Positions 34,532 to 40,892 of a stretch of DNA of 64,000 nucleotides are shown piece after piece. Origin of the DNA: Puniceicoccus vermicola (GTDB taxonomy: Bacteria > Verrucomicrobiota > Verrucomicrobiia > Opitutales > Puniceicoccaceae). The stretch covers positions 1 through 64,000 of the forward strand of contig NZ_JACHVA010000139.1 of NCBI RefSeq assembly GCF_014230055.1, in the 5' to 3' direction. Each line of letters begins with the position of its first letter. The first letter of the stretch is position 1. The notes beneath the pieces are model-generated. The model was not told the origin of the DNA. It worked only from the letters and a program-made list of their open reading frames with translations, and did not search any database. A program made the translations under genes and the position numbers.

Positions 34532-35725
34532 CTATGATTTTCCGGTCCAACGCCGATATTCTTCGGCAAAGGTTCCTTCCCGAATGGATCGGCGGATCTC
34601 GCTGGCCATCCAAGTCATGAAAGCAATGTTGTGGATGGCGAGAAGTTGTCCGCCGAGAAGTTCGCCCGCCTTGAAGAGGTGGTGCAGGTAGGCGCGGGAG
34701 TAATTGCGTGAAGCCGGTGCGATGAGACGGTCATCGAGGGGGGAGAGATCTTCGCGGAAACGGGAATTCTTGATGTTGATGTGTTCTTTTCCGTCGTTTT
34801 CCCAGGGGCGGCAGAGGGCTCCCCCATGGCGAGCGAGTCGAGTAGGGTGCACGCAGTCAAAGGTGTCGATCCCCATGGCAGCCCCTTCCCAGAGGTCGCG
34901 AAGGCCGCCGATTCCGAGAAGGTGAGTGGGGCGATCGTCGCGGAGATGGCGGCGGGCCCATCCGGTCACTTCCCGCATCTGGGCTTTGTCCGAGCCGAGC
35001 GATCCGCCGATGGCCTGGCCGAAGAAAGGTTGCTCGGCGACAAACTGGGCGCTCTCGCGGCGGAGGTCTTCGTAAACGCCTCCCTGCACGATACCGTAGA
35101 GAGCTTGGGTGCCGTCATCCCCGCGTTCGAATTCTTCGCGGCTCCGCACGGCCCAGCGATGACTCATCTGCATCGAGCGGGCCGTGTACTCCCGTTCGAC
35201 GTGGAAGGGAGTGCATTCGTCGAGGACGACAATGAGATCCGCTCCGAGTTTCCGTTGGGTCTGAATCGAGCTCTCTGGGGTGAGAAGGATCTTCTCCCCA
35301 TTGACGTAAGAATGGAAACGCGCGCCTTCCTCCGAGAGTTTGACCCCCGGGCCCTGGGCACCGATGCGGCGGCGGCCCTTGATTTCGTCGGCGATCCAAC
35401 CATGGCCAATGCTGAAAATCTGGAATCCACCGGAGTCGGTCAGCATCGGGCCATCCCAGTCCATCATTTTGTGGAGACCGCCATGGGCGGCTACGATATC
35501 GGGACCGGGTTGCAGGAGCAGGTGATAGGTGTTGGACAGGATGATGTCGGCGCCCGCCTCGCGCAGCTGGTCGGTGGTGACTCCTTTGATGGCCGCCTTT
35601 GTGGCACAAAAGATGAAATTGGGAGTCTCAATGGTGCCGTGTGGGGTGCGCAGGAGTCCAGTGCGGGCGGCGGTTTGCGCATCACTTTGTTGGATGTCGA
35701 AGGAGAATTGGGAATCGGCGCTCAT
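34532..35725 (-). CDS. tgt: tRNA-guanine transglycosylase, chlamydial-like, zinc cysteines absent
   Basis: A 397 aa TIM-barrel enzyme exchanging G34 of tRNA for a 7-deazaguanine base. Catalytic features are kept: LTDSGGFQ (Asp97), VVLDEC (Asp169), GIVQGG (Gln214) and FDCVHPTR (Asp290). The zinc site of normal Tgt, CxCxxC before the RNYSRAYL segment, reads LIAPAS here (334-339), so the three Cys are gone, while the fourth ligand His365 remains. The specificity loop is AIGGSLGSD, with Gly244 where preQ1-using enzymes carry Val. From memory, chlamydial and eukaryotic queuine-using enzymes also have Gly or a similar loop there. The start overlaps the yhhQ stop by four bases. Confidence 0.88.
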   Translation of the reverse strand: MSADSQFSFDIQQSDAQTAARTGLLRTPHGTIETPNFIFCATKAAIKGVTTDQLREAGADIILSNTYHLLLQPGPDIVAAHGGLHKMMDWDGPMLTDSGGFQIFSIGHGWIADEIKGRRRIGAQGPGVKLSEEGARFHSYVNGEKILLTPESSIQTQRKLGADLIVVLDECTPFHVEREYTARSMQMSHRWAVRSREEFERGDDGTQALYGIVQGGVYEDLRRESAQFVAEQPFFGQAIGGSLGSDKAQMREVTGWARRHLRDDRPTHLLGIGGLRDLWEGAAMGIDTFDCVHPTRLARHGGALCRPWENDGKEHINIKNSRFREDLSPLDDRLIAPASRNYSRAYLHHLFKAGELLGGQLLAIHNIAFMTWMASEIRRSIREGTFAEEYRRWTGKS

Positions 35726-36486
35726 GGCTGGGAAAGGGTTTCGGATTTTGGTGGTTTGGCCCAGTAGACGATCGGGCTGTCGAGAATGGCGACGGCGACG
35801 CGAAGCCCATAGGTTCCGAGTATATAGGTAAAGATCAGCGGTTTCCAGCCGACGGGATCGGGGGAGAAAACGACGAAAGCAAGAACACTGAAAACGACGC
35901 TGTCGACCAGTGCCGAAATCCAGGTGGAAAGGTTATTGCGGAGCCAGAGATACTTGCCATGCGTCACGGCGCGCAACCGGCTGAAGACCCAGATGTCGTT
36001 GAACTGGCTGATGAGATAGGCGGCAAGACTGGCGATGAGGATCCCCGGTGCGGGGAGGAAGATGGCCTCGAGGTTTTCCTGCATTTGCGCGGCTGAGGCT
36101 CCGAGAGCTCCGTCAGAGGGATCGAGCGGACGGAAGGCGAGGGCCGCGAAGAGAAAGAGATCGAAGAGAACCAACCCGGCAAATCCGAGGATCACCCCTC
36201 GGCGGGCCGCGGGGGCACCGTGATACTCCGTAAGAATATCAGTGCAAAGAAAGGTGGTGGAGAAAAGGATGGTCCCCAGCGCGACCGGATCGGGAAAGAC
36301 TGAAAATTGGGTCAGCTTGAGGACATGAAGATTCCCTCCGATGATCGCGACGGCCATGTAGACATAGAGGCCTGCGGGGCCCATCCAGCGGTGGAGGACG
36401 AGGATCACCGCGAACGCGGTGAGCAGAAGGCAAACCCAGATGATCTCCGGTGGGAGAGCCTGGAGGCTGTCGAGAAGTTCCCTCAC
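35722..36486 (-). CDS. yhhQ: YhhQ/QPTR family queuosine-precursor transporter
   Basis: A 254 aa membrane protein with about six to seven hydrophobic segments, of the VUT_1/YhhQ family. Family marks are FSTTFLCTDILTEYHGAPAARRGVILGF, AYLISQFNDIWVFSRLRAVTHGKYLWLRNNLSTW and DSVVFSVLAFVVF (given here as short parts TDILTEYHG, SQFNDIWVFSRL and WLRNNLSTW). YhhQ proteins import queuine or preQ1/preQ0 bases. The gene is translationally coupled to tgt (ATGA). A neighbouring base-exchange enzyme makes import of a ready-made base very likely. Confidence 0.9.
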   Translation of the reverse strand: MRELLDSLQALPPEIIWVCLLLTAFAVILVLHRWMGPAGLYVYMAVAIIGGNLHVLKLTQFSVFPDPVALGTILFSTTFLCTDILTEYHGAPAARRGVILGFAGLVLFDLFLFAALAFRPLDPSDGALGASAAQMQENLEAIFLPAPGILIASLAAYLISQFNDIWVFSRLRAVTHGKYLWLRNNLSTWISALVDSVVFSVLAFVVFSPDPVGWKPLIFTYILGTYGLRVAVAILDSPIVYWAKPPKSETLSQP

Positions 36487-36525: not shown

Positions 36526-37518
36526 TCAGATGAAGTACTCGATGTAGGCTTTCTCACGAAGCCGCTGAAGCCAATTTTCCTGGGCTTCACGAGCGATCTG
36601 GTCGGAAAGCATTTCTTCAATCGTGCCTCGGACTTCTGCGAGAGGAATTGGGCCGGGCTCGCGGATCTTTTCGACGTAGAAAAAGAAAATGCTCTTCTGA
36701 AAAGAGACCGGATCACTGACCGCGCCTTCCGGAAGGGCGAAAACGACATCACTGAGTTCGCGGCGGAGGTCCGAGCTGCCAACCCACCCGAGGCTACCCC
36801 CACGGCGGGCCAGGCCGTCCATGCTCATCTTCCGGGCGACCTCTTGGAAAGAGGTGCCATCGGCGAGCATTTCTTCCACGGTGGCGGTCTTCTCCTCTAC
36901 CGTTTCTCCCTCACTGCTGGGAGTCAGGGAGATTTGGAAGAGTTTGACCTCCTTGCCCCGTTGGAATTGCGCCTGGTTCTCCTCGTAAAATTCTTTGATC
37001 ATCTGCGGGCTGATCTCGGCCTGATTGCGTCGCATCTGCTGTTTCATCACCTGCACGATGATTTTGTCTTTCAGATCATCGCGAAAATCACGCACCGTTT
37101 GGTCCTGACTACGCAGGTAGGTGAGGAAGCGGTCCCGTTCGCCGTTGAAGTCTTCTTGGATCACATCGTTGAACTCACCCTCAATGTAGGATTTCGGAAT
37201 CGTCATCCCCTTGGTGTGGAAATTCTCCACGATCAGAATCTGGTCGATCAGGTTTTGCAGCACATCCCGTTGCAGGCGGTTCAGGTTGGCGTTGTATTCC
37301 TGCTCGTTTGAAGAAATGCGGGAGACCTGCCGGAGGAGGGGCTCCATCTCGCGGCGAACTTGCTCAAAGGTGATGATTTTCCCCTCAACCTTGGCGGCGA
37401 TCGCGTTGGGGCGATCGGGTTCCCACATCTGGTCGACGCTTTCCTGAGCGGAAAGAATCGAGCCTGCGAGGAAAAGAATCAGGCCGATAGGCCGAAGAAA
37501 AAGGTGGTGGAGGTTCAT
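36526..37518 (-). CDS. SurA-like periplasmic peptidyl-prolyl isomerase
   Basis: A 330 aa exported foldase. It has a signal peptide at about 1-24 and a SurA-type N-terminal chaperone domain at about 35-170 (AIAAKVEGKIITFEQVRREM, ALQNLIDQ-type helices). A single parvulin domain lies at about 185-295 (EVKLFQISLTP, SMDGLARRGGSLGWVGSSDL, FQKSIFFFYVEKI). It should help outer membrane proteins fold. Its ATG overlaps the mfd stop by four bases, so it is cotranslated with a DNA repair gene. A second parvulin domain, present in E. coli SurA, is absent. Confidence 0.87.
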   Translation of the reverse strand: MNLHHLFLRPIGLILFLAGSILSAQESVDQMWEPDRPNAIAAKVEGKIITFEQVRREMEPLLRQVSRISSNEQEYNANLNRLQRDVLQNLIDQILIVENFHTKGMTIPKSYIEGEFNDVIQEDFNGERDRFLTYLRSQDQTVRDFRDDLKDKIIVQVMKQQMRRNQAEISPQMIKEFYEENQAQFQRGKEVKLFQISLTPSSEGETVEEKTATVEEMLADGTSFQEVARKMSMDGLARRGGSLGWVGSSDLRRELSDVVFALPEGAVSDPVSFQKSIFFFYVEKIREPGPIPLAEVRGTIEEMLSDQIAREAQENWLQRLREKAYIEYFI

Positions 37519-40500
37519 AGACGCGCAATCATCCTAGTGATTTCTGCCAATCTGGAAAGGGGCTTTTTCTGGGTCAAGCGGGGAAAGCGCGATCCGATTT
37601 TTACGTAGCTCCCTTCCTTCCCGGTTCTTTTGAGCCGGAGAAGGGGTCCTTCGGTCGCGACAGAGGCGATTTGGTGATACTCGGCTTCGAGGCGAATCCG
37701 GGTGACGGCGAGGAGAATCTTCACGGATTCGGGCATTTTGCCGAAGCGGTCGGCGATCTCCTTTTCGATCCGGTCCATCTCTTCCCGGTTCGAAACGAGT
37801 CCGAGGCGACGGTAGAGGTCGACGCGGATGCGTGACTCGGGAATATACTCGCCCGGGATCTCGGCGGCCACGGTTTTGATGCGGCCAGAGTCCACGGCCT
37901 CTTTGCGGAAAACTTCGAACCGGGCTTCTCCGACGGGCCTTGCCCGCACTCCACCCATACCGCGGTTGATGAAATCGAGCCGCACCTCGGCCCGGACGTG
38001 GGAAGCCGTGACCTCTCCTTTGAGCCGAGCGATGCTCTGGCGGAGCAATTGGCAGTAGAGGTCGAAGCCGACTCCCGCGATTTCTCCACTCTGTTCGGAG
38101 CCGATCAAATTCCCGGCTCCGCGAAGCTCCAAATCTTTCATCGCAATCCGGTAGCCGGCTCCAAGCTGGTTGTATTGGCGGATGGCCGACAACCGTTTGC
38201 GGGCCGATTCGAGGACGCCGGTGTGGCGGTGGAGGAGGAGATAGGCGTAGGCTTGCCGATTGAATCGTCCTACGCGGCCTCGCAACTGGTAGAGTTGGGA
38301 GAGTCCAAACCGGTCGGCCCCCTCGATGATCATCGTATTGCAGTTCGGGATATCCAGTCCGGACTCGATAATGGTGGTGCAGAGGAGGAGGTCGTAGCGT
38401 CCGGCGACAAACTCGGTCATTACCTGCTCAAGTTCGCCTTCTTCCATCTGCCCGTGCCCGACGGCGATCCGGAGGCGCGGAAACATAGCGCTGAGTTTTT
38501 TTTCGACGGCGCGAATCGTTTTCACCCGGTTGTGCAGGTAAAAGACTTGGCCGCCGCGGCTGATTTCCTGATCGACGGCCGAACGGATGAGACCCTCGGA
38601 ATAGGGGTGCACCATGGTCTCGACCGGAAGTCGATCGCGGGGTGGGGTTTCGATCACACTCAGATCGCGGGCGCCGGCGAGGGCGAGGTAGAGTGTGCGG
38701 GGGATCGGGGTCGCACTCATGCTGAGTACGTCGACGTGGGTGCGCATCCGCTTGAGCTCCTCTTTCTGTCGGACTCCGAAACGATGCTCCTCATCGATGA
38801 CGAGAAGGCCGAGGTCTTTGAACTTTACCGATTTACTCAGCAAGCTGTGAGTTCCGACGACCACGTCGATGCGTCCATGCTTCAATTGCTGCCGGATACG
38901 TTTCTGTTCGCTTGGAGTGCGGAAGCGGCTGAGCATTTCCACACTGAGTGGGAAATCGGCGAATCGGTCGCGAAAGCTCTGAAAATGTTGCTGGCACAGA
39001 ACCGTGGTCGGCACGAGGAGGGCCGCTTGCTTCCCATCCATCACCGCTTTGAAAATGGCGCGGATGGCCACCTCGGTTTTGCCGAAACCGACATCTCCGC
39101 AGACCAGGCGGTCCATCGGGCGATCTTTTTCCATGTCGCGTTTAGCGGATTGGATGGCGGCCAGCTGGTCGGGAGTCTCTCGAAAAGGGAAGGAGGACTC
39201 GAAGTCTGTCTGCCACGGGGTGTCTTCGGCGAAGGCGTGGCCAGGGGTGGTGACTCGCTTTGCTTGGATCTCGAGGAGCTGGGCCGCGAGGTCGAGGGTG
39301 GAATTCTCGGCAGAGCGGCGGGCCTTCTCCCAAATCCCCGATCCCGGCTTACCCAGCTTGGGAGTGGACTTACGCAGGCCGACATAGCGGGAGAGGAGGT
39401 GAGCCTCCGTCAGGGGCAGCGAGATACGAATGCCCTCGGCGAATTCGAGGGTGATGAGTTCGCGGGTTTCCCCGTCAATCTCCTTCGGGGCGATGCCGCG
39501 GAAGATACAGATCCCGTGGGTGAGGTGCACGAGGTGATCGCCCTCGACCATTTCCGAAAAATCGAGAAGGCCATCGACGGCGTTGCGGGTCGGCAGGGCC
39601 CGTTCAGAAATCTTTTCGAGGCGAGTGCGGTCACGGCCGAAGATTTCCCGGTCGGTGATGTAGAGTTCGTCGCCGGTTTCAGTTTCCCGCCAAGCGCCTT
39701 TCCGAAGATTGCCGTGGAGGATGGGAGGATCGAAGTCACGGAGGATGGCGTCCTGAGCCATCCACTCGCGGAATCGGTTCTCCTCGCTCTCTCCGGGAAG
39801 TACTAGGTGGACTTTGGCGCCTTCGGAGGCGAGTTGGGCGACTTTGTGGAGGAATCGTAGGCGGGTCGATTCCTCGTGGGCGGTGCGGTCGGCCCCGAGG
39901 AGGCCGCGGATGAGTTCGCCGCGGAGAATCTCGGGATCCTTGGTCGTGAGCGGAATATTTTCGGAGACGAGAGCCAGGGGCAGCACCGTTTCGACTTCGG
40001 ACAGGAGGAGGGCGGAATCCTTTTCCGCGCCCGGTCGCTCAAAAATGCGGGCGAGAGTGGGGGCTCCGCTTGAACTCGGTGCAGGCAGTTTCCCCTTTCC
40101 GTGGGTTGGGCGTTCTGGCTTTTCGAAAAGTATGGGGTGCTCGCGGCGAAGGGTATCGGGCTCCTCCAGAATCCAAGTGGTCGGGCGGTCGAGGTAATCG
40201 GCGAGAGCTCCGTCGGAGACTCCCTCCGCACTTCCTTGTGTCGGTCCGATCCAGACCTCCCGTAAATTTCCCTCCGAGAGCTGACTGGTGGGATCGAAGG
40301 GGCGGATGCTCTCGACCTCGTCGCCAAAGAAATCAATGCGCACCGGATGTGCGAGGCTGACCGGATAGACATCCAGCAGGTTCCCCCGAACAGCAAATTC
40401 CCCGGGCCGCTCGCAGACGGGTTCGTTGTCGTAGCCCAGTTCTTCCGAAAGTCTCCGGGCCAGTTCGGCCGGAGGAATTTCCTCCCCCGTGCGGATGGCC

Positions 40501-40892
40501 AGCCGCTGCGCCCGCAATTGGCTTCGGGGAATGACTGGGTCGAGCAGGGCGTCGGGAGTGGTGACAAAGAGGAGGTTATCCCCTTTCTTCCGGTCGAGGA
40601 GAGCTGCGAGAGCCGCAGCGCGATCCCACTCCGCCTCGACTCGGGCACCATCGCTGGCCCCCGATTCCTTGGCGAGAGGAGGGAAGGGGAGAATCCGAAA
40701 GGAAAGTCCCAGCTGATCCCGGAAAAAACTAATTTCCACGGCCCGTTGCAGGGCGGTCCGGAATTTGGGCGCGAGGAGAAAGGACTGGGTGCTCCGATGT
40801 TCTCGGAGCCAGTCCGCAGCCATCCAGCCCAGAGCGGATTCCACCACCCCGGAATAGCGATCCAGATGGCCTGGAAAATGGACCGGCTCCAT
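37515..40892 (-). CDS. mfd: Transcription-repair coupling factor
   Basis: A large SF2 translocase (1125 aa) that removes RNA polymerase stalled at DNA lesions and recruits UvrA. The order is UvrB-like domains with the [26 protein letters not shown] segment, the CarD-like RNAP-interaction domain ([17 protein letters not shown]), the helicase core with Walker [29 protein letters not shown] and [15 protein letters not shown], then QLRGRVGR and the TRCF C-terminal domain. The start [13 protein letters not shown] is the first plausible one. The region upstream is a 119 bp repeat array, so promoter and repeats lie together. Confidence 0.95.

What the first reader, a model, noticed from the sequence alone, without database searches (positions are those of the whole stretch)
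34532..36486. A yhhQ-tgt pair that looks like a queuine salvage unit, with a Tgt that lost its zinc cysteines
Seen: yhhQ and tgt share a four-base overlap, so base import and base exchange are translationally linked. The CxCxxC zinc site reads LIAPAS (334-339), while the nucleophile, Asp97, Asp169, Gln214 and the fourth zinc ligand His365 stay. Gly244 replaces the Val of preQ1-type enzymes. Established: YhhQ imports queuosine precursors, and Val to Gly at this loop is tied to queuine use in eukaryotic Tgt (chlamydial Tgt is also reported to use queuine). Inference: this bacterium takes up queuine itself and does without de novo queG/queA steps.
Basis: partly seen in the sequence, partly recalled or inferred. 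Interest (0 to 1): 0.75.

Follow-up and report, generated by a model that had tools for sequence, protein, structure and literature searches.

The report
Queuine-salvage gene pair with zinc-less Tgt
This bacterium appears to import the finished tRNA base queuine and swap it directly into its tRNAs with one two-gene unit (yhhQ-tgt), a scheme already known from Chlamydia, but its Tgt enzyme and those of its near relatives have lost the zinc-holding cysteines that this enzyme family normally carries.

Summary
A yhhQ gene (254 aa) and a tgt gene (397 aa) on the minus strand overlap by ATGA. The Tgt keeps its catalytic residues but reads LIAPAS where the zinc site CxCxxC should be. This is no sequencing error: seven Tgts in two families (this one included) lack the site, and tgt is under strong purifying selection.

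The queuine reading is well supported by genome content. The genome (5.2 Mb, 96% complete) has one Tgt and no QueA, QueG, QueH or QueC. Across 223 genomes of the order, 0 of 50 with this Tgt type carry QueA, against 141 of 149 with the preQ1-type Tgt. A GluQRS-like gene, whose product acts on finished queuosine, is kept.

The direct queuine route is known. The zinc-less, insert-bearing Tgt branch is a new variant. Substrate and metal content are untested.

The parts
34532..35725 (-). tgt, 397 aa, queuine-type (GGSLG) bacterial tRNA-guanine transglycosylase without zinc cysteines
   Evidence: TIGR00430 400.6 bits, PF01702 E 1.1e-119; AlphaFold model pLDDT 88.7; an earlier model gave Z 51.3 / rmsd 1.6 to Z. 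mobilis Tgt 1q2r
35722..36486 (-). yhhQ / QPTR (COG1738, PF02592) queuosine-precursor transporter, 254 aa, GTG start
   Evidence: TIGR00697 154 bits, Vut_1 E 1.6e-44; conserved next to tgt in most relatives
35722..35725 (-). ATGA overlap of yhhQ stop and tgt start
   Evidence: sequence; same 4-base overlap in G002, G003, G032
34709..34726 (-). codons of LIAPAS (334-339) in place of the CxCxxC zinc ligands
   Evidence: alignment to Z. mobilis chains and to relatives
34631..34633 (-). codon of His365, fourth zinc ligand position, retained
34988..35008 (-). codons of substrate loop GGSLGSD (240-246), one residue shorter than in preQ1-type Tgt
35351..35407 (-). about 19-residue insert after the TDSGGFQ active-site motif, shared by all GGSLG-type Tgts examined
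   Evidence: low confidence in both models
36526..37518 (-). surA-like PPIase gene upstream, part of the conserved mfd-surA-yhhQ-tgt order
   Evidence: PF13145, PF13624; synteny
37515..40892 (-). mfd, transcription-repair coupling factor, start of the conserved gene order
   Evidence: TIGR00580 940 bits; synteny

Best explanation
YhhQ imports the free base queuine. The co-translated Tgt exchanges guanine-34 of tRNA-Asp, -Asn, -His and -Tyr directly for queuine through the usual covalent ping-pong chemistry (Asp290 nucleophile, Asp97 acid/base). No preQ1 stage and no QueA/QueG/QueH steps are needed. A GluQRS-like enzyme may then glutamylate Q34 of tRNA-Asp. The base pocket is widened by the shortened GGSLG loop. 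The C-terminal subdomain that normally holds zinc folds and works without it, the cysteines being replaced mostly by small residues, with Ser where the last Cys was. Shown: gene anatomy, residue losses, absence of QueA/C/G/H, co-segregation, purifying selection, predicted fold. Inferred: transport and insertion of queuine, and absence of bound zinc.
For: One Tgt only; no QueA/QueC/QueG/QueH in own genome. In 35 genomes the 13 with the GG[SC]LG loop all lack QueA, QueG and QueH, and the 16 with a GGVxV loop all have QueA. Order-wide: 0/50 against 141/149 with QueA (counted by hand from the tables). yhhQ-tgt adjacency and the mfd-surA-yhhQ-tgt order in families f1 and f4, and yhhQ-tgt adjacency in two Alphaproteobacteria-labelled MAGs and one unclassified MAG (L051-L053) that also lack QueA. 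Best PDB sequence match is the Z. mobilis chain 4hsh, which carries Gly at 233; V233G enlarges the pocket for queuine (PMC3660597). GluQRS-like ORF: best NCBIfam match is GluQRS at 239 bits (cut-off 250), and its relative in G032 passes at 261.7; GluQRS acts on the cyclopentene diol of Q (PMC4425180, PMC7694415). Purifying selection: pN 0.08-0.15 against pS 0.74-0.80. Zinc subdomain modelled at pLDDT 93-98.
Against: No assay. The loop is not exactly the GG[LS][AS]G reported for queuine-type TGTs (PMC11570991), and Cys171 is not the Val of eukaryotes; in Z. mobilis the Val233Gly and Cys158Val changes did not give queuine insertion (PMC3660597). L054 (Solirubrobacterales-labelled MAG) has a GGSLG Tgt and QueA, and G395 has both Tgt types and QueA. 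Several small-genome members have the Tgt but no YhhQ. QueD/E/F not searched; genome 96% complete. The own GluQRS-like protein misses its curated cut-off. The queuine-type Tgts of the order form largely one clade, so 50 genomes are not 50 independent events.
Confidence: 0.8

Rival explanations
1. Bartonella-like case: YhhQ and Tgt still handle preQ1, tRNAs stop at preQ1-34 (or queuine is used only at high concentration), and the downstream genes were simply lost.
For: B. henselae has tgt and QPTR without QueA/QueG/QueH yet prefers preQ1 (PMC11570991). Cys171 is the bacterial Cys.
Against: Bartonella keeps the preQ1 loop GGLAVG; here the loop is altered and shared by every QueA-less, Tgt-bearing relative in the 35-genome set. 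GluQRS needs the diol of Q and appears to be kept.
Confidence: 0.1
2. The Tgt still binds a metal through other ligands (His365 plus backbone, Ser339 or a partner chain), so zinc is moved and not lost.
For: His365 is retained in all the order's zinc-less members seen; it may be kept because it still serves a metal.
Against: The replaced positions are Leu, Ala, Pro, Ser; no new Cys/His/Asp cluster is conserved there across family f1. His could be kept for hydrogen bonding alone.
Confidence: 0.12
3. Loss of zinc cysteines marks a decaying Tgt that is on its way out, with little or no activity.
For: Loss of a structural site is a usual sign of decay, and tgt is often the last Q gene kept (PMC11570991).
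Against: Strong purifying selection, all catalytic residues kept in four own-family and three f4-family members, conserved gene order.
Confidence: 0.05

Closest known systems
Direct queuine salvage of Chlamydia trachomatis (QPTR/YhhQ + queuine-type bacterial TGT; Yuan et al. 2019, cited in PMC11570991)
   Same: Same two protein families, no QueA, no QueG/QueH, altered substrate loop in place of the Val233 region.
   Different: Large genome (5.2 Mb) instead of a reduced intracellular one; loop GGSLG with a deletion; about 19-residue insert after TDSGGFQ; zinc cysteines absent. The chlamydial sequence itself could not be aligned here, so which of these it shares is not known.
Zymomonas mobilis / Escherichia coli preQ1-type TGT (TIGR00430)
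   Same: Fold (Z 51.3, rmsd 1.6 A over 365 residues to 1q2r), catalytic aspartates, Gln, Cys171.
   Different: Loop GGLAVGE replaced by GGSLGSD; insert; no CxCxxC.
Human QTRT1 (eukaryotic TGT)
   Same: Room for queuine by loss of the Val233 side chain; a region after the active-site strand that differs from bacterial enzymes (114-138, PMC6165067) lies near where the insert is here.
   Different: Only about 228-230 bits; works with QTRT2, no second Tgt-family protein here; QTRT1 keeps zinc and has Val161 where this protein has Cys171.
Bartonella henselae QPTR-TGT
   Same: tgt and QPTR without QueA/QueG/QueH.
   Different: Bartonella keeps the preQ1 loop and inserts preQ1 (PMC11570991).
Clostridioides difficile indirect salvage (QueK, QueL)
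   Same: Feeds on queuine or Q.
   Different: That route rebuilds preQ1 and then needs QueA and QueG or QueH, absent here.

Membership tests
Bacterial Tgt (TIGR00430 / PF01702) | Score over curated family cut-off | tested here: met
   400.6 bits vs 306.75; PF01702 400.2 vs 26.3
Bacterial Tgt (TIGR00430 / PF01702) | Catalytic residues (Asp102, Asp280 of Z. mobilis) and substrate residues Asp156, Gln203 equivalents | tested here: met
   D97, D290, D169, Q214 aligned
Bacterial Tgt (TIGR00430 / PF01702) | C-terminal zinc site CxCxxC...H | tested here: not met
   LIAPAS 334-339; only His365 kept. That it is a Tgt homologue is not in doubt; that it is a zinc Tgt is.
Queuine-type bacterial TGT (PMC11570991) | Motif GG[LS][AS]G in the substrate pocket | tested here: inconclusive
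   Loop is GGSLG: altered loop of the same length and no Val, but Leu in the fourth position
Queuine-type bacterial TGT (PMC11570991) | Genome with tgt but no QueA and no QueG/QueH | tested here: met
   0 of 50 order-wide with QueA
Queuine-type bacterial TGT (PMC11570991) | Inserts queuine into tRNA | not testable with these tools
   needs an assay
Eukaryotic-type TGT (QTRT1) | Val at the Z. mobilis Cys158 position | tested here: not met
   Cys171 (DECT), also in the other GGSLG-type Tgts of the order
QPTR / YhhQ (PF02592, TIGR00697) | Score over curated cut-off | tested here: met
   152.3 vs 27.2; 154.1 vs 50.95 bits
QPTR / YhhQ (PF02592, TIGR00697) | Transports queuine | not testable with these tools
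   E. coli-type subfamily model NF008406 reaches only 38.6 of 252 bits, so it is not of that subfamily, but its substrate cannot be read from this
GluQRS (NF004315) | Score over curated cut-off | tested here: inconclusive
   own ORF 239 vs 250; relative in G032 261.7; a separate longer GltX-type ORF exists

The most novel reading that the evidence does not exclude
A lineage of Tgt enzymes works without structural zinc: within one bacterial order both the queuine-type branch (families f1 and f4) and the preQ1-type branch have shed the CxCxxC ligands, and the GluQRS-like enzyme of this genome seems to lack its usual Cys cluster too, so queuosine handling here may have been made zinc-independent as a whole.
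Probability: 0.4. Interest if true: 0.6.

Novelty: new variant of a known kind. Interest (0 to 1): 0.48.

Why it matters
A zinc binding domain is described as one of the two hallmarks of TGT structures from bacteria to eukaryotes (PMC6165067). A natural, conserved set of Tgts without the ligands, under purifying selection, would give a ready system to ask what the zinc is for: folding, dimer formation or tRNA binding. The sharp split in one order between preQ1-type and queuine-type genomes, with paired loss of queA/queG/queH, also offers a clean case of how a bacterium with a large genome changes from making queuosine to scavenging it, and the small-genome relatives point to a candidate new queuine carrier of the MFS family.

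Tried and rejected
Loci of the genome search are not re-oriented; a first alignment mixed strands and was discarded. One search crashed on a record name and was redone. The recent PDB entries 10fa/10fb/10fc, close to the window Tgt in score, looked like possible queuine-type enzymes; they have the ordinary GGLAVGEPK loop and CDCYTC, so they are no model. A preQ1 riboswitch before yhhQ was looked for: none in the window at Rfam gathering scores. Tying zinc loss to queuine use was rejected. No chlamydial Tgt could be fetched for alignment. Literature searches for zinc-less TGT, or for queuine in Verrucomicrobia or Opitutae, found nothing relevant; absence in this open-access library is not proof. 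Placement of L054 and L074 in the tree is unsafe (long branches, quick tree only).

Full report
What is there. On the minus strand, a 254-aa yhhQ (35722-36486, GTG start) is followed by a 397-aa tgt (34532-35725); stop and start share ATGA. Both are clear family members: Tgt 400.6 bits to TIGR00430 (cut-off 306.75), YhhQ 154.1 bits to TIGR00697 (cut-off 50.95). Upstream lie a surA-like gene and mfd; downstream an OmpA-family gene. The order mfd-surA-yhhQ-tgt recurs in the own family (G002, G003) and in family f4 (G006, G032, G446; G427 is cut inside surA at its contig end); in G001 yhhQ and tgt are on different contigs, both genes kept.

The zinc site. Against Z. mobilis chains the segment CHCAVC aligns without gaps with LIAPAS. 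Relatives read LPAPAS, LPPSAS, VPHPAS (own family) and LPCKAS (family f4, three genera). So seven Tgts in two families lack the full site, while 25 other queuine-type Tgts of the order and those of L051-L053 keep all three Cys. The seven form one group in a quick ML tree (SH-aLRT 94), so one loss is the simplest reading. The preQ1-type Tgts of the same order also lack it: of 16 examined, 13 keep one Cys and 3 none. They sit elsewhere in the tree, so the site was lost more than once, and zinc loss is not a part of the queuine switch. Ser stands in for the last Cys in all seven queuine-type cases and in several preQ1-type ones. His365 is kept in all of these. AlphaFold with 36 sequences gives mean pLDDT 88.7 and block means of 93-98 for residues 331-350; an earlier model of the same protein matches Z. 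mobilis Tgt 1q2r at Z 51.3, rmsd 1.6 over 365 residues. The predicted fold thus does not depend on the cysteines, but such models do not test metal binding. Between congeners pN is 0.08-0.15 and pS 0.74-0.80 for tgt, so the gene is under strong constraint.

The queuine question. G000 has one Tgt match, no QueA, no QueC, no QueG, no QueH. In the 35-genome set, all 13 genomes whose Tgt has GG[SC]LG lack QueA, QueG and QueH; all 16 with a GGVxV loop have QueA. Over 223 genomes of the order, Tgt scores fall into two groups, 457-918 bits and at most about 305 bits, plus two weaker, probably contig-cut hits in queuine-type families (G446, G546). QueA is found in 0 of 50 of the first and 141 of 149 of the second (counted by hand from the two tables). 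These counts are not independent events: the group is largely one clade. L051-L053 (two labelled Alphaproteobacteria, one unclassified; about 60% identical Tgts, zinc site intact) also lack QueA and carry yhhQ directly before tgt (PF02592 confirmed for L051 and L053), so the pair may have moved between phyla as a unit. Exceptions exist: L054 has GGSLG with QueA, and G395 has both Tgt types with QueA.

A GluQRS-like gene is kept. G000:C53 holds a 286-aa ORF whose best NCBIfam match is GluQRS (239 bits, cut-off 250; gltX 186), and the G032 relative passes the cut-off (261.7); a longer GltX-type ORF is separate. GluQRS attaches glutamate to the cyclopentene diol of Q34 (PMC4425180, PMC7694415), a group that preQ1 lacks. 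Keeping it without QueA/QueG/QueH makes sense if queuine is inserted whole. This is inference, and the own protein misses its curated cut-off narrowly.

The pocket. In Z. mobilis, Val233Gly makes room for queuine but does not by itself confer queuine insertion, nor clearly does adding Cys158Val (PMC3660597). Human QTRT1 has Gly at this place and Val at the Cys158 place (PMC6165067). Here the loop is one residue shorter (GGSLGSD against GGLAVGE) and Cys171 remains Cys. Whether Gly244 or Leu243 takes the Val233 place depends on the gap and could not be measured. Every GGSLG-type Tgt checked also has an 18- to 21-residue insert right after TDSGGFQ, near the stretch 114-138 in which QTRT1 differs from bacterial TGT (PMC6165067). 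The published bacterial queuine motif is GG[LS][AS]G (PMC11570991); GGSLG is close but not identical.

Relation to what is known. Direct queuine salvage by QPTR plus a changed bacterial TGT is established for Chlamydia trachomatis (PMC11570991, PMC7694415), and QPTR-tgt clustering and fusion is described (PMC11130926). The unit here works like that. New, as far as the held literature goes, are its presence as the apparent sole Q route in large-genome members of this order, the insert-plus-short-loop subfamily, and above all the recurrent loss of the zinc ligands. I file it as a new variant of a known kind.

Side lead. Small-genome relatives (0.7-1.3 Mb) keep the queuine-type Tgt but show no YhhQ in families f7, f13, f25, f26, f27, f99. 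In f25 (G027, G424, G443) and in G031 of f27 an MFS_1 gene sits directly before tgt. MFS proteins near tgt have been proposed, and one shown, to carry Q precursors (PMC11130926); these are candidates for queuine.

Limits.

Noticed in passing
L122 2739-4031 (-), L119 1-1326 (+), L162 2578-3870 (+), L108 2704-4041 (-): MFS_1 transporter gene directly before queuine-type tgt in small-genome relatives that lack YhhQ (families f25 and f27); candidate queuine importer.
   Followed up: partly
L173 3122-3982 (-): GluQRS-like protein of the own genome; reading the sequence, the Cys cluster I recall from E. coli GluQRS is missing as well, which parallels the zinc loss in Tgt.
   Followed up: partly
L074 (G395:C2:7218-8270): Second, long-branched Tgt paralogue with GGSLG, insert and degenerate motifs (LDELPPY, AVVHG, DTFDS, NVYPT) beside a normal Tgt in the same genome; perhaps another function.
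   Followed up: no
L030, L075, L076, L078-L081, L086, L089, L091, L094: Several genomes of the order carry a Tgt-like gene in an open frame of about 690-870 aa with intact zinc cysteines; many of them also hold a normal-sized Tgt. In L030 the extra length is a C-terminal extension.
   Followed up: no
L051, L052, L053: yhhQ-tgt pair of the same type, about 60% identical Tgt, in two MAGs labelled Alphaproteobacteria and one unclassified MAG (1.7-1.8 Mb); suggests horizontal transfer of the pair or misclassified bins.
   Followed up: partly
L165 (G001 tgt) and L125 (G001 yhhQ): In one congener yhhQ and tgt are on different contigs and not adjacent, so coupling is not essential.
   Followed up: yes
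L001-L016, preQ1-type genomes of the order: All 16 preQ1-type Tgts sampled in this order lack at least two zinc cysteines (mostly NNYTC or DNYTC in place of CxCxxC), although QueA and mostly QueG or QueH are present.
   Followed up: partly
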